NCBI RefSeq assembly: GCF_003996855.1
Contig: NZ_NRQY01000001.1
Span: forward strand, 2,744,206 to 2,759,475
Direction: 5' to 3'
DNA from: Morganella morganii
Lineage (GTDB): Bacteria > Pseudomonadota > Gammaproteobacteria > Enterobacterales > Enterobacteriaceae
Length of the DNA stretch: 15,270 nt
Part shown: piece by piece, positions 5,307 to 15,270 of the stretch
Layout: every line of letters begins with the position of its first letter
Position numbering within the stretch: the stretch's first letter is position 1
Program-made: the position numbers and the translations under genes
The notes under the pieces: generated by a model
Told to the model about the DNA's origin: nothing
Databases searched by the model: none
What the model saw: the letters and a program-made list of their open reading frames with translations, nothing else

Positions 5307-6077
5307 ATGCGACATCCCTTAGTTATGGGTAACTGGAAGCTGAACGGCAGCAGTAAAATGGTTCATGAGCTGATCACCGCTCTGCGTCATGAAATCGGCA
5401 ATGTCACCGGGTGTGACGTTGCGATCGCACCACCGGCAATTTATCTTTCTCAGGCCAAACAGGTCCTGGCAGGCTCCTCCATTATGCTGGGTGCCCAGGA
5501 TACCGGTCTGAATCTTTCCGGTGCCTTCACCGGCGAAACCTCTCCTGAGATGCTGAAAGATATCGGCGCACACTACATCATTATCGGCCACTCCGAGCGC
5601 CGCACCTATCATGGTGAAAGTGATGAATTAGTGGCAGAGAAATTCGCTGTCCTGAAAAAACTGGGTCTGACCCCGGTACTGTGCATCGGTGAATCCGAAG
5701 CAGAAAATGAAGCGGGTAAAACCGAAGAAGTCTGCGCGTGTCAGATTGATGCTGTTCTGAATACTCAGGGTGCAGACGCCTTCATCGGTGCAGTCATTGC
5801 CTATGAGCCAATCTGGGCTATCGGCACCGGCAAATCCGCCACTCCTGCACAGGCTCAGGCGGTACATAAATTTATCCGCAGCCATATCGCGAAGAAAGAT
5901 GCGAAAGGGGCAGAGCAGGTCATTATCCAGTACGGCGGTTCTGTAAATGATAAAAACGCCGCAGAGCTGTTCACCCAGCCGGATATCGACGGCGCATTAG
6001 TCGGTGGCGCATCACTGAAGGCAGATGCGTTCGGCGTGATCGTCAAAGCCGCCGCGGCAGCAAAAGCCGCAAAATAA
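5307..6077 (+). CDS. tpiA: Triose-phosphate isomerase
   Basis: Interconverts dihydroxyacetone phosphate and glyceraldehyde-3-phosphate in glycolysis and gluconeogenesis; a cytoplasmic homodimer with the TIM-barrel fold. The 256 aa match bacterial TpiA in length. Catalytic residues fall where expected: N9 and K11 in MGNWKLNG, H95 in IIGHSERR, and E167 in [14 protein letters not shown], the last including the mobile loop 6. The phosphate-binding YGGSV is at about 209-213 and LVGGASL at 231-237. AGGAGG just before the ATG fixes the start. The protein ends in an Ala/Lys-rich tail (AAAAAKAAK). It is convergent with pfkA, so two glycolytic genes meet at one terminator. Glycerol-3-phosphate metabolism (glpTQ, same window) feeds its substrate. 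Confidence 0.98.
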
Positions 6078-6096
6078 TTTCCGGCCTCCGGAAAGC

Positions 6097-6124
6097 AAAA
6101 AGCGGCGAAATCGCCGCTTTTTTT
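6097..6124. terminator. Bidirectional terminator between tpiA and pfkA
   Basis: The stem AGCGGCGA (6101-6108) / TCGCCGCT (6111-6118) is flanked by an A-run on the left (6097-6101) and a T-run on the right (6118-6124). It is therefore an intrinsic terminator for tpiA on the plus strand and also for pfkA on the minus strand. It lies 20 nt after the tpiA stop and 28 nt beyond the pfkA stop. Confidence 0.9.
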
Positions 6125-6152
6125 GTGTCTGTATGAAGGATGACGAGGATTT

Positions 6153-7130
6153 TTAATAGAGTTTCTTCGCGGTCTCGTACCAGTCTTTCTTAAACACCCG
6201 CTTCATATTCATTACTGCATCAATAATATCGTGGTGAACCAGTTTTTCATTCTGGATCCCGACACAACGGCCGCCGTAACCTTCCAGTAATAACTGAATA
6301 GAATAAGCGCCCATACGGGATGCAAGGATGCGGTCATACGCTACCGGCGAGCCGCCGCGCTGAATATGTCCCAGCACCGTTGCGCGGGTTTCGTGATGTG
6401 TTGTCGCTTCAATCTGCCGCGCCAGTTCATACACATCGGTGACATGCTCGGTGATCGCCACAATCGCATGACGTTTACCTTTATCAATCCCGGCTTTGAT
6501 TTCTGCAATCAGTTCATCACTGCTGTATTCCACTTCATTCGGCGGCAGAACAATAAATTCACAGCCCCCGGCAATAGCAGCGGACAGTGTCAGATCACCG
6601 CAATAGCGCCCCATCACTTCCACAATAGAGATACGTTTATGGGATGTGGAGGTATCACGCAGACGGTCAATCGCTTCAACCACGGTTTCCAGCGCGGTAA
6701 AATAACCGATGGTGTAGTCGGTTCCCGCCACGTCATTATCGATAGTACCCGGCAGGCCGATGCACGGGAAGCCCGCTTCTGTCAGCTTTTTGGCACCGAG
6801 ATAGGAACCATCCCCGCCGATAACCACCAGCGCATCGATACCATTTTTGCGCATATTTGCAATCGCGGTTTCCCGCACTTTGTCATCACGAAATTCAGGG
6901 AAACGTGCCGACCCGAGGAACGTACCGCCGCGGTTGATCACATCTGAGACACTGAAGCGGTCGAGCTGTTTCATCCGGTTTTCATACAGCCCGAGATAGC
7001 CGTCATAAATCCCGATAACTTCCAGCCCTTCTGACAGCGCAGCACGGACAACACCGCGGATTGCGGCATTCATGCCCGGCGCATCACCGCCGCTTGTCAG
7101 CACACCGATTCGTTTGATCTTCTTGCTCAT
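6153..7130 (-). CDS. pfkA: ATP-dependent 6-phosphofructokinase, major isozyme
   Basis: Phosphorylates fructose-6-phosphate to fructose-1,6-bisphosphate with ATP, the committed step of glycolysis; an allosteric cytoplasmic tetramer activated by ADP/GDP and inhibited by phosphoenolpyruvate in this family. The 325 aa compare with 320 in E. coli. ATP-binding GGDAPGMN is at residues 14-21 and GGDGS at 105-109. The catalytic stretch PGTIDND (127-133) gives D131 as the presumed base by offset from E. coli D127. MGRYCGDL and the substrate-binding [13 protein letters not shown] occur in order. GAGG lies just ahead of the ATG at 7128-7130. The gene is intact and runs toward tpiA. The region upstream of it is where accessory DNA begins. 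Confidence 0.98.
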
Positions 7131-7979: not shown

Positions 7980-8008
7980 CCATTTCAGCCTGACGAAATG
8001 GCTTTCGT
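7980..8008 (+). promoter_or_regulatory. Two mutually exclusive hairpins in the adhesin leader
   Basis: CCATTTC (7980-7986) pairs with GAAATGG (7995-8001). ACGAAA (7993-7998) pairs with TTTCGT (8003-8008). The shared segment 7995-7998 cannot be in both stems. They lie 28 nt upstream of the ATG at 8037 and just before the AGGGA ribosome site (about 8024-8028). Neither has a T-run, so any role would be in translation or mRNA stability, not termination. Speculative. Confidence 0.3.
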
Positions 8009-8036
8009 TATATTTACCGACACCAGGGAATAACTA

Positions 8037-9179
8037 ATGAAAACAAAAAAGAAAATATTACACTCCGCTATTCTGTCTGTTATTTTCACCGCAGCGCCTT
8101 CATTGGTTATGGCTGAAACATTCTGTGGTGACAGAGGCTATGTCGCTTACGGCGGGGGTATCGCGAAAGATTTGACACTGCTGAGCGGCAGTAAACTCAG
8201 TGTACTCGGCCTGTTTGAGGATTCTCAGGTTCAGGGCGGTGCTGAAGTCTGGATTGATAAAACGACACATATTGCCTGGGACGGCTATCACACCGGTTTT
8301 CCGGCCACCGGCAGCCGTATTGATATTCAGAGCGGCGGCTTAATCCGTGTTCTGGACGGCGGAACATTAAAAGATTCCGTACTCAACGGCGGCACTGTCT
8401 ATGTCAGTAATACCGGTAAAGCCGATGATCCGGGCCAGTCTGTAAATAATATCGTCAACAGCGGCGGGAAATTATTTATTTACCTGGGCGGGGAATCGAC
8501 CGGTACTCAGGTTAATAACGGCGGTTATGAATATGTTCAGCAGGACGGAAAATCCCTGAATACGGTCGTGAATAACGGCGGTGCCCAGATGCTGAAATCC
8601 GGCGGATTTGCGGACAGCACCATTATTAATGACGGCGGATTACAGCAACTGCACGGTAAAGGTTTTGCGGATAATACCCTCGTGAACGCCGGAGCACGGC
8701 AATATGTTGTCGATGATTCCAAAGCAACCAATACAACCGTTGACGGTGGCCAGCAATATATTTTCCGTCAAAACGCAGCAGCCGCTGCCGGTATTGCGGA
8801 ATTTAACCAAATAAAAAATGGCGGAGCCCAGATTATTAAAGGCGGCGGACAAGCCATTAATAACGAATTATATGACACCGCCGTGCAAAGTATTTACGGC
8901 AGCTCCTCCGCCACTGACACCACACTGAATGATCGCGCCAAAAGCTGGCTGGCGGCAGGGGCTCAGCTCCTCGGCGTCACCACGGTTAATCAGCAGTCTC
9001 AGGTGCAGCACACCACCGGCGCGGAAGACAGACTGGCTGCGGATGCCGGGGCTTATGCGGAAAATGTCATCTTATCCGGCCCGGACAGCTCCCTGCTGGT
9101 GATCACCGGTGATACCGGGAATGCCGCATTTGCCGGTTCACTCAGCGGACAGGGGCAGGTGCGGTTTGGGCACGATTGA
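8037..9179 (+). CDS. AIDA-I/Ag43-like autotransporter adhesin passenger, 3'-truncated
   Basis: Family members are surface adhesins whose beta-helical passenger is exported through their own C-terminal beta-barrel. This 380-aa protein has a signal peptide (residues 1-26, ending LVMAE) and a passenger made of degenerate repeats of about 19-20 aa with the AIDA pattern: VVNNGGAQMLKSGGFADSTI, INDGGLQQLHGKGFADNTLV, VNAGARQYV and so on (about residues 95-300). It then reaches the segment LAADAGAYAENVILSGPDSSLLVITGDTGNAAFAGSLSGQGQV, which in relatives leads toward the later passenger, and stops abruptly at 9177-9179. No barrel domain is encoded. From about 9169 the DNA is phage tail tube sequence in another frame, so the gene was cut by a deletion or recombination event. 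The shortened product would be exported to the periplasm at best. Probably non-functional. Confidence 0.85.
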   Translation: MKTKKKILHSAILSVIFTAAPSLVMAETFCGDRGYVAYGGGIAKDLTLLSGSKLSVLGLFEDSQVQGGAEVWIDKTTHIAWDGYHTGFPATGSRIDIQSGGLIRVLDGGTLKDSVLNGGTVYVSNTGKADDPGQSVNNIVNSGGKLFIYLGGESTGTQVNNGGYEYVQQDGKSLNTVVNNGGAQMLKSGGFADSTIINDGGLQQLHGKGFADNTLVNAGARQYVVDDSKATNTTVDGGQQYIFRQNAAAAAGIAEFNQIKNGGAQIIKGGGQAINNELYDTAVQSIYGSSSATDTTLNDRAKSWLAAGAQLLGVTTVNQQSQVQHTTGAEDRLAADAGAYAENVILSGPDSSLLVITGDTGNAAFAGSLSGQGQVRFGHD

Positions 9180-9453
9180 CGGTACACAGTACCGCTTTGC
9201 CGGTTCATACTATGACGATGCCACCGGTGAAACAACCGCGTATGAGATCCAGACACGCGGGCGTTTTAACGAACTTGACCAAGGCACCGCCAAGGCCGGG
9301 GACAACACCCAGCATAAATACACGCTGAAAAATACCTACATCAAAATTACTGCTGATGGTGAGGACATTTTCGAGCTGGATTTAATCAACATGAAATGGA
9401 TCGTTAACGGCGTTGATCGCCTGGCAGAGCACCGCGCCAATATTGGCCATTAA
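9169..9453 (+). pseudogene. FII: P2-like major tail tube protein (gpFII), 5'-truncated
   Basis: FII forms the inner tube of contractile P2-type tails. The retained C-terminal part of about 94 aa reads GTIDGTQYRFAGSYYDDATGETTAYEIQTRGRF and ends NMKWIVNGVDRLAEHRANIGH, matching the second half of P2 FII (RFAGSYQRDDTGETV and VNGVDRLEQHRRNIGL, from memory; 172 aa in all). The first 75-80 residues are absent and are replaced by adhesin DNA. The only upstream ATG in frame (9109) lies in adhesin sequence read out of frame, so no true start remains. A remnant gene; it marks the left limit of prophage DNA. Confidence 0.88.
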
Positions 9454-9814: not shown

Positions 9815-9969
9815 TCGCAGAAATACCCGCCATCGATATTGACGACCTTATCGCGGATATCGCGATGGTGTTTCACTGGCCGCCGGTATCTTTCGACACC
9901 ATGAGTGTGTCAGAGCTGCTGAAATGGCACAGGCTCGCGGCGACCCGCATAGGACAGAATGATGAGTGA
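9730..9969 (+). CDS. E': gpE' extension made by -1 frameshift (GpE family)
   Basis: This frame overlaps the end of E and is not expected to start on its own; ribosomes should enter it at 9769 after slipping back one base on TTTTTTA. The extension reads IPAIDIDDLIADIAMVFHWPPVSFDTMSVSELLKWHRLAATRIG, a clear match to the P2 GpE family core (ADIA..FHWPP...M...EL..W). The stop at 9967-9969 overlaps the start of the tape measure gene at 9959. The gpE-E' fusion would be about 152 aa. In P2 the corresponding shift site is a similar T-rich heptamer; function by homology is chaperoning tape measure and tube. Confidence 0.85.
   Translation: MLCATGKRGGDFFSAECPSRRDGRTGRLIAEIPAIDIDDLIADIAMVFHWPPVSFDTMSVSELLKWHRLAATRIGQNDE
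9763..9769 (+). promoter_or_regulatory. Programmed -1 ribosomal frameshift site (TTTTTTA)
   Basis: T TTT TTA is an X XXY YYZ heptamer in the E reading frame (codons TTT at 9764 and TTA at 9767). Slipping back by one base gives TTT TTT and then AGC in the E' frame, which stays open for 66 more codons. No stop intervenes. No downstream stimulatory structure was identified. Confidence 0.85.
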
Positions 9970-12877
9970 TCGCAATCTCAATATCCGGGTAGCACTTAAC
10001 GCCGTCAATAACTTTTCCTCACCGGTGAGAGCCGCACAACGCAGCGCCGCCGGTTTTTCTTCTCAGATAAAAGCCACGCAAAACAGCATCAAAAATCTTG
10101 CCGGTCAGGCAGCTACATTTGATCGGTTGTCACAGTCTGTTAAACGCAATAACACGGCTTACGAAGAATCCAAGGCAAAAGTTAAGGCGCTGCGCGACAG
10201 CTACCCCGCATTAAATCAACGCACTGAAGAACAAAAACGCGTACTGGAACAGGCACGGCAGGCGCGTGACCGCCTTGGCCGTTCTCTCGACAGTGAAAAG
10301 CAAAAACTACAGACAGCAGCAGCACAGCTGTACCGGCACGGCATATCTGTCCGGAACAGCGATAATGCCACCGCACAAATAACCCGGCGCACCGAAGCCT
10401 ATAACCGGCAGCTTGAGGCGCAACGGCAACAGTTGGCAGCCGTCACCCGGGCGCAATCTCAATACCAAAAAGCCAAAGAGACACGCGGCAAGCTGGCAAT
10501 GGGTGGCGCGGCTGCAATGGCGGCCGGTGGCGGAATGCTCTATGGCATGAGCAAAATCATAGCCCCCGGTCGTGAATTTGATTTCAGAATGTCCAATGTT
10601 CAGGCTCTGACGAAACTGGATAAAGACAGCCCTCAGTTTCAGGCATTGCGCGATCAGGCTAAAGAACTCGGTGCAAATACTGCATTTACTGCTGCTGATG
10701 CTGCATCGGGACAAAAATTTCTCGCAATGGCCGGCTTCACGCCCGATGCAATAAAACAGGCGCTGCCTGGTGTTCTGAATATGGCACTGGCTGGTGCAAT
10801 GGCGGATAACGGGATCCGCGGCTCAATGGCGGGTACGTCACTGCGTGCCGGTCTTTCACGCCTTGTCGCGCCTGTCGGCAAAGGTCAAAAAGCAATGGAA
10901 GCGCTCGGTGTATCAATCAAAGATGCAAACGGGCAACTGCGGTCTGCCGATGAAATATTAAAGGATGTCGGAATAAGACTGCGGAAATATGACCAGGCAA
11001 GCCAGATCAAACTGAAAAAAGATATTTTCGGTGAAGAAGCTATGGTCGGTATGGGGGCGGTCATTGATGCCACCTTAAACGGCAAATACGACAAACTTAA
11101 AAAGTTAAATGACGAAGCCCGTGGGCGTGCAAAAGCGATTGCCGATACAAACATGGATAACCTCGACGGGGATATCCTTGGCCTAACATCCGCTTGGCAG
11201 GGGTTCGGGATTGAACTCAAAGAGAAAATAGATCCAATCCTGCGCAGCATTACCCAAACCATAACCGGCGTTATCCGAAGTATTACCGCATGGATGAACG
11301 CACATCCGCAACTGACAAAAGCACTCGGTGTTGCAGTGATCGCCATTGGTGCAATCACAGCTGCTATTGGTGCCTTAGCACTTGTCGCCGCTGCTGTTAT
11401 TGTTCCAATCGCCGCGTTACGGCTTGGCCTGTTTATGCTTGGCTCTGGTGGCATAGGAGCATTAATTCCCCAGATGGGCTTTCTCTCCACAATGCTGTCC
11501 GGTTTGATGCCTAAATTACGGGCAATCGGAACCGGCATCGGTAGCTGGAGCGGGATATTTACCAGTATCGGCGGCTCAATTGTTAATTTTGGACGTAATG
11601 CTTTCGGCCTGATAATAAGCAATGCAATCAGAGCCGGTGCCGCAATGAAATTTGCGTTTACCAATCCGATGGCATCACTGGCAATACTTGGTAATGGCGT
11701 TAAAAATTTAGCACTGTCTGGTTTCAGTGGTCTGGCTAATGCTGCCCGGATGACATTTTCAGCCGTTGGCGGCGGACTATCTATGTTATTAAGCCCTGTA
11801 AGTATTCTGGTTATCGCTATAGTTGGCGCGGCTATTGCTATTTACAAATACTGGGATCATATCAGGGCTTTTTTTGGCGGTTTCTTTGAGGGGTTAATGA
11901 CCGGACTTGCCCCCATTGGTCAGGCCTTCAGCGCAGTATTTGGTGGTCTGGCTCCTGTTTTTGATGGCATCTGGACTGCTATCAAAAAAATGTGGGATTG
12001 GCTGACAGAATTATTTACCCCGATCAAAGCCTCTGACGAGGCACTGCAAGCCTGTACAGAAGCAGGGAAAATATTTGGTGAAGTCGTCGGAATTGCTATC
12101 CGCACCCTGCTTTATCCAATAGAGCTTGTCGCCAAAGGAATAGGATCTATTCTGGAACTACTTGGCATGGCTCCTACTGCTGCCGAAGATGCTGTTAATA
12201 AAATCAACAAAATGAAGCCTGTTGAACTGTCAGCAGCAGATGCAGCGAAGCTTAAAGGCCAGGGCGAAAAAGTCATGAGCCTGTTTACACCAAAGTGGAA
12301 ACTCCCGAAAGGTGCCAGTGACTTTATCGACGGCGCGGGCAAAAAGGTTTCAGACGTTGCCGGGAAAGCAAAGGAGAAATTAACCGGCGCGTGGGACGAA
12401 GCCATCAAAGAGGCGGAGAAAAAGAACAAACAGAAGGAAGCAACTGATGCGGCTTACGGTTCACAGGTCTATGACCCGACAGCGAAGAAAGACAAGGACG
12501 GTTCAGGCTTCAGCAGTCCGGCAGATAACGCAGCGAAAGACCCGAATAAACTCGGTGAAATCGTCTTTAAAAACTTCCCGGCGATTAAAGCGGTTGACGG
12601 ACTGTATCAGGATCCGTCTGTGCGCTCTCCGTCAGCTTTTAAGCGCGTGTCGGCACCGGATGTTATTGCCTCTGATATTACTCCGGCAAAAATGGAAATG
12701 CAGCGCCCCGCTGCACGGCAGGACATCAAGCAGGAAGGAGATAAAATTGAGCTACATTTTCACGGCGTGGATATGGCAAACGCGAAAAGTATCGCGGCAC
12801 TGGTACGGCAGGAACTGGAAAAACTGAAGCGCACTCAGGACAGTCGCCTCCGGTCACAACTCACAGATATAGGGTAA
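9959..12877 (+). CDS. T: Phage tail tape measure protein (gpT-like, TP901 type), with probable internal deletion
   Basis: Sets tail length and is ejected with DNA in contractile-tailed phages. The 972-aa protein has a coiled-coil-rich N terminus (about residues 25-175, Gln/Lys/Arg-rich), a glycine/alanine hydrophobic stretch (178-200), and the conserved TP901/PhageMin_Tail domain (about 201-420: FDFRMSNVQALTK, ANTAFTAADAASGQKFLAMAGF, GSMAGTSLRAGLSRL). Long hydrophobic segments follow (454-495, 505-560, 598-630), then a charged Lys-rich C-terminal region. At residues 278-282, MALAG joins directly to AMADNGIRGS. In relatives some 60-70 residues separate these motifs, including the NTNLSMLGETMKYVAPVA-like stretch. 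The frame stays open. The start overlaps E' by 11 nt; of the tandem ATGs (9959, 9962) either may be used. Confidence 0.9.
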   Translation: MMSDRNLNIRVALNAVNNFSSPVRAAQRSAAGFSSQIKATQNSIKNLAGQAATFDRLSQSVKRNNTAYEESKAKVKALRDSYPALNQRTEEQKRVLEQARQARDRLGRSLDSEKQKLQTAAAQLYRHGISVRNSDNATAQITRRTEAYNRQLEAQRQQLAAVTRAQSQYQKAKETRGKLAMGGAAAMAAGGGMLYGMSKIIAPGREFDFRMSNVQALTKLDKDSPQFQALRDQAKELGANTAFTAADAASGQKFLAMAGFTPDAIKQALPGVLNMALAGAMADNGIRGSMAGTSLRAGLSRLVAPVGKGQKAMEALGVSIKDANGQLRSADEILKDVGIRLRKYDQASQIKLKKDIFGEEAMVGMGAVIDATLNGKYDKLKKLNDEARGRAKAIADTNMDNLDGDILGLTSAWQGFGIELKEKIDPILRSITQTITGVIRSITAWMNAHPQLTKALGVAVIAIGAITAAIGALALVAAAVIVPIAALRLGLFMLGSGGIGALIPQMGFLSTMLSGLMPKLRAIGTGIGSWSGIFTSIGGSIVNFGRNAFGLIISNAIRAGAAMKFAFTNPMASLAILGNGVKNLALSGFSGLANAARMTFSAVGGGLSMLLSPVSILVIAIVGAAIAIYKYWDHIRAFFGGFFEGLMTGLAPIGQAFSAVFGGLAPVFDGIWTAIKKMWDWLTELFTPIKASDEALQACTEAGKIFGEVVGIAIRTLLYPIELVAKGIGSILELLGMAPTAAEDAVNKINKMKPVELSAADAAKLKGQGEKVMSLFTPKWKLPKGASDFIDGAGKKVSDVAGKAKEKLTGAWDEAIKEAEKKNKQKEATDAAYGSQVYDPTAKKDKDGSGFSSPADNAAKDPNKLGEIVFKNFPAIKAVDGLYQDPSVRSPSAFKRVSAPDVIASDITPAKMEMQRPAARQDIKQEGDKIELHFHGVDMANAKSIAALVRQELEKLKRTQDSRLRSQLTDIG

Positions 12878-12882
12878 CCGCT

Positions 12883-13326
12883 ATGATGATGATTTACGGT
12901 ATGTTTGTTTTTATGCTGGAAACCATACCTTACCAGAACTTACAGCGATCAATGAGCTGGCGCTATGCCAAAAATGACCGTGTCGGCCGTTCCGCGAGCT
13001 GGCAGTATATCGGGGCGGGTGAGGATAAGATCACCCTGAACGGCGTGCTGCTGCCGGAAGTAACCGGCGGTGATATCTCGCTGGAACTTCTGCGCACTGC
13101 CGCCTATCGCGGACGGCCTTACCCGCTGATTGAGGGTACCGGCATGATTTACGGTATGTACATCATGGACGGCCTGAACGAGGGGCGCGCTGAGTTCTTT
13201 TCAGACGGCAAAGCCAAACGGATAGAGTTCAGTATTTCCCTTGTGAAAGCCAGCGAGGATCTGCGCGAACGGCTAGCCGATCTGGAGTTCAGCGATTTGA
13301 TGGATATATTGCCGGGGTCGTTATAA
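12883..13326 (+). CDS. U: P2-like tail protein gpU
   Basis: gpU is a minor tail protein thought to act at the head-proximal tail end or in tail completion of P2-type phages. The 147 aa carry the family signature: YGMFVFMLETIPYQ at the N terminus (P2: LGMFVFMRQTLPHQ), IGAGEDKITLNGVLLPEVTGG at about 45-65, and YPLIEGTGMIYGMYIMDG near 82-100. P2 gpU is 159 aa, so the C terminus is slightly short and ends DLMDILPGSL. The start has three tandem ATGs with AGGG upstream; the gene begins 5 nt after the tape measure stop. In P2 the next gene would be D (tail hub), but here a terminator and an opposing invertase follow, so the tail operon is cut short. Confidence 0.9.
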   Translation: MMMIYGMFVFMLETIPYQNLQRSMSWRYAKNDRVGRSASWQYIGAGEDKITLNGVLLPEVTGGDISLELLRTAAYRGRPYPLIEGTGMIYGMYIMDGLNEGRAEFFSDGKAKRIEFSISLVKASEDLRERLADLEFSDLMDILPGSL

Positions 13327-13993
13327 AAATAGTAATGGGTGAAATTATTTTCACCCTTTTTTTTATTATCCCTTCTGCCCTTCTGCCCTTCTGCCCTTCT
13401 GCCCTTCTGCCCTTCTGCCCTTCTGCCCTTCTGCCCTTCTGCCCTTCAGCCGGAAAATACCGGTAAACAGTCGATACCCCCACACCATAAATAATTGCCA
13501 GCTGCTGCCGGGAGTATCCTTTATCCAGCAGCCGGCCGATTTGCTCCCGGTCATTCTGTGTCAGTACCGCCGGTCTTCCGCCGATTCTGCCCTGTGCTCT
13601 CGCTGCGGCCAATCCTGCCAGCGTACGCTCCACTATCAACTCGCGTTCCATTTCTGCTGGTGCCGACATGACGTGAAAGAAAAAACGTCCCATAGCGGTA
13701 CTGGTGTCGATACTGTCCGTCAGTGATCGGAAATGTGCGCCGCGTTCGTGCAGATCAGATATCAGGGCTATCAGGTTTTTGACACTGCGCCCGAGCTTGT
13801 CCAGTTTCCACACTGCCAGTGTATCGCCCGGCTGAATGGCCTTTAATGCCCGTTTCAGTCCTGGTCTGACGGCGGTTTTACCGCTCATTTTGTCCTCAAA
13901 AATCTGGTCGCAATTTATGCTGATGAGCGCGTTTCGCTGTAAATCGCTGTTTTGGTCAGTTGTTGATACACGGATATAGCCGATGACCGCCAT
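13289..13993 (-). CDS. Hin/Gin-family serine DNA invertase with a repeat-encoded C-terminal tail
   Basis: Inverts DNA between paired 26-bp sites; in phages it switches tail-fibre genes, with help from Fis. The 234 aa align with Hin/Gin/Pin (about 180-195 aa) up to residue 184: catalytic YIRVST (R8, S10), FEDKMSGKTAVRPGL, TDSIDTSTAMGRFFFHVMS, the long E helix, GGRP, and a helix-turn-helix ending STVYRYFPAEG. Residues 185-208 are three copies of QKGRRAEG, encoded by nine 8-bp repeats, and 209-234 (IIKKRVKIIS...) are read from the gpU terminator and the antisense of the U 3' end. Two changes stand out: K66 in WKLDKLGRS, where relatives have Arg, and P112 in MSAPAEMERE, where relatives have Leu. 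It overlaps U tail-to-tail by 38 bp. Activity is doubtful. Confidence 0.92.
   Translation of the reverse strand: MAVIGYIRVSTTDQNSDLQRNALISINCDQIFEDKMSGKTAVRPGLKRALKAIQPGDTLAVWKLDKLGRSVKNLIALISDLHERGAHFRSLTDSIDTSTAMGRFFFHVMSAPAEMERELIVERTLAGLAAARAQGRIGGRPAVLTQNDREQIGRLLDKGYSRQQLAIIYGVGVSTVYRYFPAEGQKGRRAEGQKGRRAEGQKGRRAEGIIKKRVKIISPITIFITTPAIYPSNR
13337..13364 (+). terminator. Rho-independent terminator after gpU
   Basis: GGGTGAAA (13337-13344), loop TTAT, and TTTCACCC (13349-13356) form an 8-bp perfect stem followed by eight T residues (13357-13364). It lies 10 nt after the U stop and ends the tail operon. On the minus strand the same DNA is read as coding by the long-tail form of the invertase. 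Confidence 0.9.
13370..13449 (-). repeat. Octanucleotide microsatellite inside the invertase 3' end
   Basis: Nine perfect tandem copies of CCCTTCTG on the plus strand (13370-13441; CAGAAGGG on the coding minus strand) are followed by a tenth copy with one mismatch, CCCTTCAG (13442-13449). Three units make 24 nt and eight residues (QKGRRAEG). Since 8 is not a multiple of 3, each gain or loss of a unit changes the downstream frame. Confidence 0.97.
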
Positions 13994-14645
13994 TGTTTTC
14001 CCTCATGTTTACTGTAATGACGGGATTATTACGAATTTATCCGGTTATGGCTGCATTCCCGGAAACCTTGGTTTACCGGAAAAGTATCAGCCGAAGGGAG
14101 ACTATCAGCAAGCCGGTGATTATGCATTGCAAAGTGAGGTGAATAAAAAACGGGACAAAACGGACGTCGTTTTTAAATTATTCGCGTACCAGCCGTATGA
14201 AACAGAACTTAATTCAGTCTGGTTTTTTACAAATGATGGCGACGGTGCCTGGCGACAGGGGTTAGCCAGAAATAAAGATGGCGTAGCCGGATATAGCAAC
14301 GTTCGCTCAGATCATTCCGGAGATATTGCGCATACCAACGAGCTACTTGGATTCGGCCAGCACTGGCAAAACGTAGCCCCACAGCGCCAGCAGGGAGTTG
14401 TTTACCATAACACAACAGGAAAGCCTATTGTTGTGTGTATTGGTAATCTGTATCAAAAAGTTCCACAGGGTGAGTATGCGGGATTCGGTTTTTATGTTGA
14501 TGATGTCAGGGTTGCTTCTTATGGGGGAAACTCTGTCTACTGGGTGGATAACTTGTCCGTTATAGTACCGTCCGGCAGTTCTTATACCCTCGCAGCAGAC
14601 AATGGAAAAATAGGATTTAATGACTGGGCGGAGTTACGCGGATGA
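13983..14645 (+). CDS. Tail-fibre C-terminal variable cassette, apparently silent in this orientation
   Basis: The 220-codon open frame starts at 13983 inside the invertase 5' end, but the real tail-fibre homology begins at the crossover-like site (14056), coding IPGNLGLPE, and continues KYQPKGDYQQAGDYALQSEV. The C terminus contains FGQHWQNVAPQRQQGVVYHNTTGKPIVV, YVDDVRVASYGGNSVYW, VIVPSGSSYTLAADNGKIGFNDWAELRG, a pattern typical of receptor-binding tips of phage tail fibres. No N-terminal shaft or tail-attachment domain lies upstream; the invertase is there instead. The cassette is therefore probably an unexpressed alternative end that is joined to the constant part only after inversion. Its stop overlaps the start of the assembly gene (ATGA), so the two form a unit. 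The true start is undefined. Confidence 0.75.
   Translation: MTAIVFPHVYCNDGIITNLSGYGCIPGNLGLPEKYQPKGDYQQAGDYALQSEVNKKRDKTDVVFKLFAYQPYETELNSVWFFTNDGDGAWRQGLARNKDGVAGYSNVRSDHSGDIAHTNELLGFGQHWQNVAPQRQQGVVYHNTTGKPIVVCIGNLYQKVPQGEYAGFGFYVDDVRVASYGGNSVYWVDNLSVIVPSGSSYTLAADNGKIGFNDWAELRG
14056..14081. other. Candidate invertase crossover site (hix/gix/dix-like)
   Basis: A 26-bp imperfect palindrome has the invariant-looking core AAACC-TT-GGTTT (14063-14074) with TTCC outer ends on both arms. Hin and Gin sites are also 26 bp with AAACC and GGTTT around a central dinucleotide (comparison from memory); the central pair here (TT/AA) equals that of hixL. It lies 63 bp upstream of the invertase start and codes for the NLGL motif of the tail fibre, the usual position of such sites. 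A partner in inverted orientation should lie beyond the right edge. Confidence 0.8.
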
Positions 14646-15073
14646 ACTACTACAAAGATAAATCAGGCATTGTTTATGCCTACGACGATGAACAAATGGC
14701 TGTCATTGACAGAATAAATGCGCCTGATTTCGACAGCGAAAAAGAGCAGGTTCCAGATATTTTCTTTGAGATTGACGAGAAAATTAAAGGTATGCAAAAA
14801 ATGACAGCGAAAGAAGTTGATGCGCATATCAATCCGCCAGTGACCAAAGAACAGCATATACAGCAGGCCGAAACCAAAAAGCAGGCGTTGATTGCTGAGG
14901 CTAACCAAAAAACGCAGATGTGGCAGACCCAGCTTATTCTGGGAATCATCACGGAAGAAGATAAAGCCAGCCTCAAAGAATGGATGCTGCACGTGCAGGA
15001 AGTGCAGGCGGTAGATCCATCCCTCGGGGCTGATGTTGTATGGCCTACACCACCGGCTTCACCGGCCAGATAA
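14642..15073 (+). CDS. Tail fibre assembly chaperone (Tfa/gpG-like, Caudo_TAP family)
   Basis: Small chaperone (143 aa) that helps its cognate tail-fibre tip fold or trimerise. It has the family layout: an N-terminal MNYYKDKSGIVYAYDDEQMAV, a middle variable part, a helical KEQHIQQAETKKQALIAEANQKTQMWQTQL segment (about 75-102), ITEEDKASLKEW, and the C-terminal VDPSLGADVVWPTPP motif. It overlaps the tail-fibre cassette by 4 nt (ATGA) and so is co-translated with it. If the cassette is silent in this orientation, this gene is too. Its 3' end overlaps the convergent second chaperone by 29 bp. Confidence 0.88.
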   Translation: MNYYKDKSGIVYAYDDEQMAVIDRINAPDFDSEKEQVPDIFFEIDEKIKGMQKMTAKEVDAHINPPVTKEQHIQQAETKKQALIAEANQKTQMWQTQLILGIITEEDKASLKEWMLHVQEVQAVDPSLGADVVWPTPPASPAR

Positions 15074-15270
15074 TATCCGGGGCGGTGGATGCGTCCACTG
15101 CCTCCAGTTCGTCCAGATAATCCAGCCAGGTGTTTAACAGCGCCTTTTCATCATCTGTGATGCGGCCAAGTGCCAGTTTTGCCCGCAGCATTTCTGTTTC
15201 GGTGTTGACCTCAGCAATGAGTGCCTGTTTTTGTGATTCAGCGATAGCGACATACTGTTCATGCGACAGC
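15045..15270 (-). CDS. Second tail fibre assembly chaperone, partial (5' end outside window)
   Basis: The minus strand is open from the right edge to TAG at 15045-15047, giving 74 residues: LSHEQYVAIAESQKQALIAEVNTETEMLRAKLALG, ITDDEKALLNTWLDYLDELEAVD, and the C-terminal APDIIWPVKPVV. This is the C-terminal half of another Tfa-family protein, related to but diverged from the plus-strand copy (ALIAE, LG.IT..., AVD, D.(I/V)(I/V)WP shared). Two convergent tfa genes meeting tail to tail are the hallmark of an invertible tail-fibre segment. This copy is probably the one linked to the expressed fibre, with the matching fibre end and constant part to the right. Confidence 0.85.
   Translation of the reverse strand, partial: LSHEQYVAIAESQKQALIAEVNTETEMLRAKLALGRITDDEKALLNTWLDYLDELEAVDASTAPDIIWPVKPVV

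What the first reader, a model, noticed from the sequence alone, without database searches (positions are those of the whole stretch)
13370..13449. Phase-variable octanucleotide repeat inside a DNA invertase gene, giving three alternative C-termini
Nine perfect CAGAAGGG units (coding strand) follow the helix-turn-helix of a Hin/Gin-type invertase. Working out the frames: if the copy number is 0 mod 3 (as here, 9) the protein gains QKGRRAEG repeats plus IIKKRVKIIS... to 13289. If it is 1 mod 3 it ends after QKG at a double stop (TAATAA). If it is 2 mod 3 it runs as DNKKKGENNF... far into the antisense of gene U. The 1 mod 3 form gives the natural, family-length protein, suggesting that was the ancestral state. 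A slippage-prone repeat would thus sit in the gene that switches the tail fibre: a switch acting on a switch. I know of no described case. The basic tail could alter DNA binding, Fis or site synapsis; this is inference.
Basis: partly seen in the sequence, partly recalled or inferred. Interest (0 to 1): 0.8.

Follow-up and report, generated by a model that had tools for sequence, protein, structure and literature searches.

The report
Octamer repeat in decaying prophage invertase
A short DNA unit has copied itself into a row of nine at the end of a phage gene-flipping enzyme, but the enzyme and the prophage around it look broken, so this is most likely harmless slippage in a decaying viral remnant rather than a switch acting on a switch.

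Summary
1 mod 3 as the ancestral state is supported: six of six orthologous invertase/gpU junctions have no array and stop at the equivalent place. The "switch on a switch" is not supported. (1) The invertase has Lys66 where 67 of 67 relatives have Arg (the Tn3 R68 position) and Pro112 where 66 of 67 have Leu. (2) A deletion of about 5.4 kb fuses an autotransporter gene to the tail-tube gene and removes the sheath gene. (3) The C-terminal tail varies freely in the family, is dispensable in Hin (PMC3798978, passages) and is predicted disordered here. (4) The octamer also expands in an unrelated, probably intergenic place in another enterobacterium. Best reading: slippage from an imperfect dimer, tolerated because the gene no longer matters. 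No second allele of the array was seen, but the collections could hide one, so variability is untested.

The parts
13370..13441 (-). Nine perfect tandem CAGAAGGG units
13442..13449 (-). Imperfect tenth unit CTGAAGGG; with one CAGAAGGG it corresponds to the near-dimer (CTGAAAGG CAGAAGAG and close variants) of the repeat-free relatives
13289..13993 (-). Hin/Gin-type DNA invertase ORF, 234 aa as it stands; Ser10 present; Lys66 and Pro112 not shared by any relative examined
13363..13368 (-). TAATAA double stop used if the copy number is 1 mod 3; with one unit its second TAA is, by codon count, the stop of the repeat-free relatives
13337..13356 (.). GGGTGAAATTATTTTCACCC hairpin between convergent gpU and invertase, terminator-like on both strands
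14056..14081 (+). gix/hix-like crossover site, 0 mismatches to a consensus that I recalled
   Evidence: two sites each in L190 and L002
13983..14645 (+). Tail-fibre variable half
   Evidence: phrog_26525, phrog_18834; no Pfam match
14642..15073 (+). Tail fibre assembly protein
   Evidence: Caudo_TAP
15045..15269 (-). C-terminal part of a second, oppositely oriented tail fibre assembly protein, running off the window
12883..13326 (+). P2 gpU tail gene, convergent with the invertase
9959..12877 (+). Tape measure gene (gpT), open
9169..9453 (+). Tail tube gene FII truncated at its 5' end (starts at residue 77 of 170)
7998..9168 (+). Stretch homologous to the first 418 of 854 residues of an AIDA-like autotransporter (ORF from 8037), cut at its 3' end by the deletion

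Best explanation
A P2-like prophage of a Morganella carried a Gin/Hin-type invertase whose gene ended in an imperfect 8-bp dimer just before its stop codon. In the lineage of the window this dimer became more alike and expanded by replication slippage to nine perfect units. This shifted the frame away from the old stop, so that 53 residues, predicted to be disordered, now follow the last conserved proline. The prophage has also suffered a deletion from the host autotransporter gene into the tail-tube gene, and the invertase has lost residues that are otherwise conserved, so it probably no longer inverts DNA. The repeat is therefore most likely a neutral by-product of decay. Shown: array, frames, repeat-free orthologues, unshared substitutions, deletion relative to a related genome. 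Inferred: slippage, loss of activity, neutrality, the host genus, and the order of events.
For: Six of six orthologous junctions (L002, L004, L007, L008, L176, L189) lack the array and read YFPAE(R/M)QKRK-stop from CTGAAAGG CAGAAGAG or close variants; at one copy the window gives YFPAEGQKG-stop-stop. Lys66 occurs in 0 of 67 and Pro112 in 0 of 67 unique relatives. In a second panel of 120 database representatives, 103 could be read by position: 100 of 103 have Arg66 and 100 of 103 Leu112, and none has Lys66 or Pro112. Position 66 aligns with gamma-delta/Tn3 R68, which contacts the scissile phosphate (PMC4499144, passages). Leu112 lies in the Hin rotation interface (PMC4513852, passages). The window joins autotransporter residue 418 to FII residue 77, while G003 has an apparently complete prophage in the same place. 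Tails after the conserved proline vary from 2 to 29 residues in the 83 of 120 proteins with the motif, none repetitive. Hin's own tail is dispensable (PMC3798978, passages). Residues 185-234 have pLDDT below 50. The same octamer stands in seven perfect copies in an unrelated, probably intergenic place in G023.
Against: The reading frames of T, U and the invertase remain open. The invertase shows no general rise of amino-acid changes: against the consensus of 16 sequences it has 15 synonymous and 5 other differences, and the highest among the other 15 is also 5 (L017); its 3 unshared amino-acid changes equal those of L015. So decay is recent, partial, or not general. Arg to Lys is a mild change and no paper passage seen here tests it. 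Cryptic-prophage invertases can stay active and useful (PinQ, PMC12529663, passages). Nine perfect copies with no point mutation suggest a young array or one under constraint.
Confidence: 0.75

Rival explanations
1. Neutral repeat on a still-active invertase: the array expanded in a dispensable C-terminal tail and the enzyme, despite Lys66 and Pro112, still inverts the fibre segment.
For: Ser10 and Arg69 are kept; the HTH is recognised; no general rise of amino-acid changes; Hin's tail is dispensable (PMC3798978 passages); cryptic-prophage invertases can be active (PMC12529663 passages).
Against: Two unshared substitutions at otherwise conserved sites, one of them a proline within helix E; no sheath gene and a broken tube gene in the window, so no particle for the fibre to serve, unless such genes lie elsewhere in a genome that is not held.
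Confidence: 0.15
2. Contingency switch on the switch: slippage between 0, 1 and 2 mod 3 tunes invertase activity and so tail-fibre inversion.
For: Perfect 9-copy array with frame-dependent ends; a gix-like site and fibre module alongside.
Against: No second allele seen, within collections that could hide one; the enzyme is probably inactive; the tail is dispensable in Hin; all frames alter only residues after the HTH; none of 143 invertase ends examined has a tandem unit of 4-12 bp in three or more copies.
Confidence: 0.05
3. Pil1-like attenuation: copy number decides whether ribosomes stop before the intergenic hairpin or run through it, so it gates antisense transcription into gpU and gpT.
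For: Hairpin directly downstream; the stop is before it only in the 1 mod 3 frame; precedent with GCAGA repeats in Streptococcus gallolyticus (PMC3894217, abstract and section 13).
Against: In the 1 mod 3 frame the stop is only 9 nt before the stem, so a ribosome may cover it anyway, whereas the published short frame ends 39 bp before its terminator; downstream lies only the antisense strand of tail genes; the tail operon is already broken.
Confidence: 0.03
4. Sequencing or assembly error created the array length or the frame.
For: Source reads not available; no whole genome is held.
Against: The array with its imperfect unit is 80 bp, which would fit in a usual short read (inference; read lengths unknown); an array of the same octamer exists in another genome.
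Confidence: 0.02

Closest known systems
Hin/Gin/Cin/Pin DNA invertases of phages and enterobacteria (phrog_125; PDB 4m6f, 3uj3)
   Same: Resolvase domain, HTH_7, gix/hix-like site, adjoining opposed fibre-module genes
   Different: Lys66 and Pro112; 53 residues, most from the repeat and beyond, after the last conserved proline; the prophage is deleted at one end
SSR-mediated (slipped-strand) phase-variable genes, reviewed in PMC11868660 (passages seen)
   Same: Perfect tandem unit whose length is not a multiple of three, inside an ORF
   Different: No allelic variation seen; alters only a tail that is dispensable in Hin; not a surface-structure gene
Pil1 leader-peptide attenuator of Streptococcus gallolyticus (PMC3894217, abstract and section 13 seen)
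   Same: Repeat in a coding frame just before a terminator-like hairpin, with frame-dependent stop
   Different: The repeat ends a full gene, and no sense-strand gene follows the hairpin
Cryptic-prophage invertase PinQ and e14 of E. coli (PMC12529663, passages seen)
   Same: Invertase and fibre module in defective prophages
   Different: PinQ is shown to be active; activity is doubtful here

Membership tests
Hin/Gin-type serine DNA invertase | Resolvase catalytic domain followed by HTH_7 | tested here: met
   Pfam PF00239 (2.9e-44) and PF02796 (5.5e-15); phrog_125
Hin/Gin-type serine DNA invertase | Catalytic serine (Ser10) | tested here: met
   S10 invariant in the 25 sequences of A1, window included
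Hin/Gin-type serine DNA invertase | Catalytic arginine at the Tn3 R68 position | tested here: not met
   Lys66; Arg in 67 of 67 relatives, aligned with gamma-delta Arg68. It is a member by descent; activity is doubted
Hin/Gin-type serine DNA invertase | Inverted gix/hix-like sites flanking a segment with opposed fibre halves | tested here: inconclusive
   One site in the window and opposed assembly-protein genes; a second site would lie beyond 15270. Relatives L190 and L002 have two
Hin/Gin-type serine DNA invertase | Recombination activity | not testable with these tools
   needs an assay
SSR phase-variable locus | Perfect tandem repeat with unit not a multiple of 3 inside an ORF | tested here: met
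SSR phase-variable locus | Copy number varies among strains or cells | tested here: inconclusive
   Six of six orthologous junctions have no array; no second array allele found; no reads available, and the 405 members of the Morganella protein cluster P0001 could not be seen one by one
SSR phase-variable locus | Copy number changes gene function | not testable with these tools
   Only the residues after the HTH differ
Pil1-like repeat attenuator | Terminator after the repeat, with frame-dependent stop before or past it | tested here: met
Pil1-like repeat attenuator | A regulated gene downstream on the same strand | tested here: not met
   Downstream on the minus strand is antisense to gpU and gpT

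The most novel reading that the evidence does not exclude
The array works as a frame-dependent read-through gate: in two of three copy-number states ribosomes that translate the invertase run across the gpU/invertase terminator, so antisense RNA silences the tail operon, while the third state restores the normal stop. A slippage clock in an invertase gene would thus control tail-gene expression rather than DNA inversion.
Probability: 0.03. Interest if true: 0.75.

Novelty: new member of a known kind. Interest (0 to 1): 0.22.

Why it matters
As it stands the locus shows how a slippage-prone octamer can arise from an imperfect dimer in a gene end that has little constraint, and it warns that a perfect, frame-shifting repeat is not by itself evidence of a contingency locus. 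I saw no described SSR inside a DNA invertase gene in the listings of three searches of an open-licence library (20 of 84 papers listed, 2 of 2, 1 of 1); subscription papers are mostly not in it.

Tried and rejected
No near match (about 85% or more) of 12883-14645 in 50,697 phage records or 20,395 E. coli records. Distant matches of 13280-14100 (631 plasmid records, 3467 E. coli records, 92 phage records; 30, 40 and 40 listed) are mostly annotated as recombinases or invertases, the best being Morganella record L002. A scan of viral contigs for three units in a row gave one contig, L001; I read its end and saw no invertase there, but did not annotate it. A search with the tail residues 172-234 listed 12 proteins; the five I read (P0121-P0124, P0126) are repetitive proteins without a listed resolvase domain. 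Rfam gave nothing at its gathering threshold for 12800-14300. Considered and dropped: a tailocin rather than a prophage. G003's copy of the cluster is followed by head, terminase, replication and integrase genes, so it is a P2-like prophage. Whether the window's module has a second crossover site could not be tested because the window ends first. Papers: no test of the Lys66-type change in the listings and passages seen; the Morganella/invertase/fibre search listed 20 of 49 papers, none with a title on this locus.

Panels and rows dropped. The relatives come from the loci held then: the best 80 of 369 viral relatives, the best 80 of 90 genome relatives, and loci. Only ORFs with GYIRVS were read, without gaps; 117 ORFs collapsed to 68 unique by the 170 residues from GYIRVS on, window included. 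In one search, 17 of 120 proteins could not be read and are left out; the 3 of 103 that disagree at positions 66 and 112 look register-shifted. In one search, 37 of 120 lacked the end motif. L181, L190 and L177 are the same contigs as L004, L007 and L008 and were counted once. Of the 15 contigs, eight had no match above 85% to the invertase region and were left out. Of 979 proteins found, 120 were listed.

Full report
What is there. On the minus strand at 13370-13441 nine perfect CAGAAGGG units follow the helix-turn-helix end of a serine DNA invertase; a tenth, imperfect unit (CTGAAGGG) precedes them at 13442-13449. The array scores 157 in Tandem Repeats Finder and is far beyond chance: two units with up to 2 mismatches are expected 0.01 times in shuffles, against 9 matches found.

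Where it is. The window's tpiA-pfkA stretch (5307-7130) matches six of six genomes of the genus Morganella at 87-95%, so the host is taken to be a Morganella; the window's own genome is not held. After that comes an AIDA-type autotransporter gene cut at residue 418, fused to a tail-tube gene FII that begins at residue 77, then E, T, U, the invertase (convergent with U), a fibre half, and two assembly-protein genes in opposite directions. A gix/hix-like site lies at 14056-14081 (the consensus is recalled). Relatives L190 and L002 have two such sites each.

The prophage is damaged. G003, one of the six genus genomes, has in the same place an intact 854-aa autotransporter gene followed by a P2-like prophage with D, sheath FI, full FII, E, T, U, fibre, baseplate, head, terminase, replication and integrase genes. 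In G003 the two points that are fused in the window lie about 5.4 kb apart, so relative to G003 the window has lost the end of the autotransporter, a gene of phrog_3403, D, FI and the start of FII; loss of the left attachment site is inferred. G003 itself has a fixed fibre and assembly gene and no invertase here. Two invertase-carrying relatives, L189 and L190, have full-length matches to D, FI, FII, E, T and U.

The ancestral state. Six of six orthologous gpU/invertase junctions in hand (plasmid record L002 of M. morganii and contigs L004, L007, L008, L176, L189) have no array. They read YFPAERQKRK-stop or YFPAEMQKRK-stop, from a near-dimer such as CTGAAAGG CAGAAGAG, and five of the six share the exact hairpin that follows. 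With a single unit the window reads YFPAEGQKG and stops at TAATAA; by codon count the second TAA is the relatives' stop (the aligner sets it one column off, in a run of A). Slippage itself is inferred.

The enzyme. Against 67 unique relatives the window alone has Lys66 (67 of 67 Arg) and Pro112 (66 Leu, 1 Ala). In a second panel, 100 of the 103 readable database representatives have Arg66 and 100 of 103 Leu112; the other three look register-shifted. Position 66 aligns with gamma-delta Arg68; a paper on Tn3 resolvase says R8 and R68 contact the scissile phosphate (PMC4499144, passages). Hin Leu112 belongs to the rotation interface of helix E (PMC4513852, passages). In the model, residues 112-120 have pLDDT below 50, which may reflect the proline or the shallow alignment of 25 sequences. 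I conclude that the enzyme is probably inactive; this is not shown. Against it: the gene shows no general rise of amino-acid changes. It has 15 synonymous and 5 other differences from the consensus of 16 sequences, and the highest of the other 15 also has 5; its 3 unshared amino-acid changes equal those of L015. Any loss is therefore recent.

The tail. Among 83 of 120 representatives with the end motif, 2 to 29 residues follow the last conserved proline, none repetitive; here it is 53. None of 143 invertase ends in the loci held (overlapping loci counted more than once, window not included) has a 4-12 bp unit in three or more copies. Hin's C-terminal segment is described as unstructured, absent from other invertases and deletable without effect on inversion (PMC3798978, passages). 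Residues 185-234 here have pLDDT below 50. So even on an active enzyme the repeat would probably do little.

The octamer elsewhere. None of the six Morganella genomes has two units in a row. Of 392 genomes of the family, one (G023) has three or more units in a row: seven perfect ones plus variants, in what appears to be an intergenic stretch between RarD-like and CorA-like genes (these two names are recalled from the proteins, not searched). One viral contig has three units at its end. The unit can therefore expand without any evident link to invertases.

Limits on variability. No second allele of the array was seen, but the genome collections hold one genome per species, the protein collection is clustered at 90% identity (the Morganella cluster P0001 stands for 405 sequences that could not be read one by one), and there are no reads. 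Absence of variation is not shown.

Mechanism. Most likely (0.75): neutral slippage in the little-constrained end of a gene in a decaying prophage. Rivals: neutral on a still-active enzyme (0.15), a true contingency switch (0.05), ribosome/terminator gating (0.03), error (0.02). The gating idea has a published parallel in Pil1 (PMC3894217, abstract and section 13), but here the 1 mod 3 stop lies only 9 nt from the stem and nothing but antisense follows. PinQ (PMC12529663, passages) is a reminder that cryptic-prophage invertases can matter.

Verdict.

Noticed in passing
window 9168-9169: Deletion junction fusing an AIDA-like autotransporter gene to the phage tail-tube gene; about 5.4 kb present in G003 is missing.
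   Followed up: yes
L002 (NZ_CP070551.1, 5,246 bp): A Morganella record called a circular plasmid has seven annotated genes, all phage tail, fibre or recombinase genes (one named only hypothetical), and no replication gene; it may be an assembly product or an excised circle.
   Followed up: no
window 10784-12874: The later part of the tape measure is much more diverged from G003 (59.8% aa) than its start (82.1%), which suggests mosaicism.
   Followed up: no
L213 (G023), about 1469-1556: The same octamer, seven perfect copies plus CAAAAGGG variants, in an apparently intergenic stretch of another enterobacterium.
   Followed up: partly
G003, L208:13102-15030: The same prophage site carries a fixed fibre and assembly gene with no invertase, so the invertible module is optional.
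   Followed up: partly
G001:C1:2173298-2173607: Another invertase copy in a Morganella genome matches only in three pieces, so invertase decay seems to occur elsewhere in the genus.
   Followed up: no
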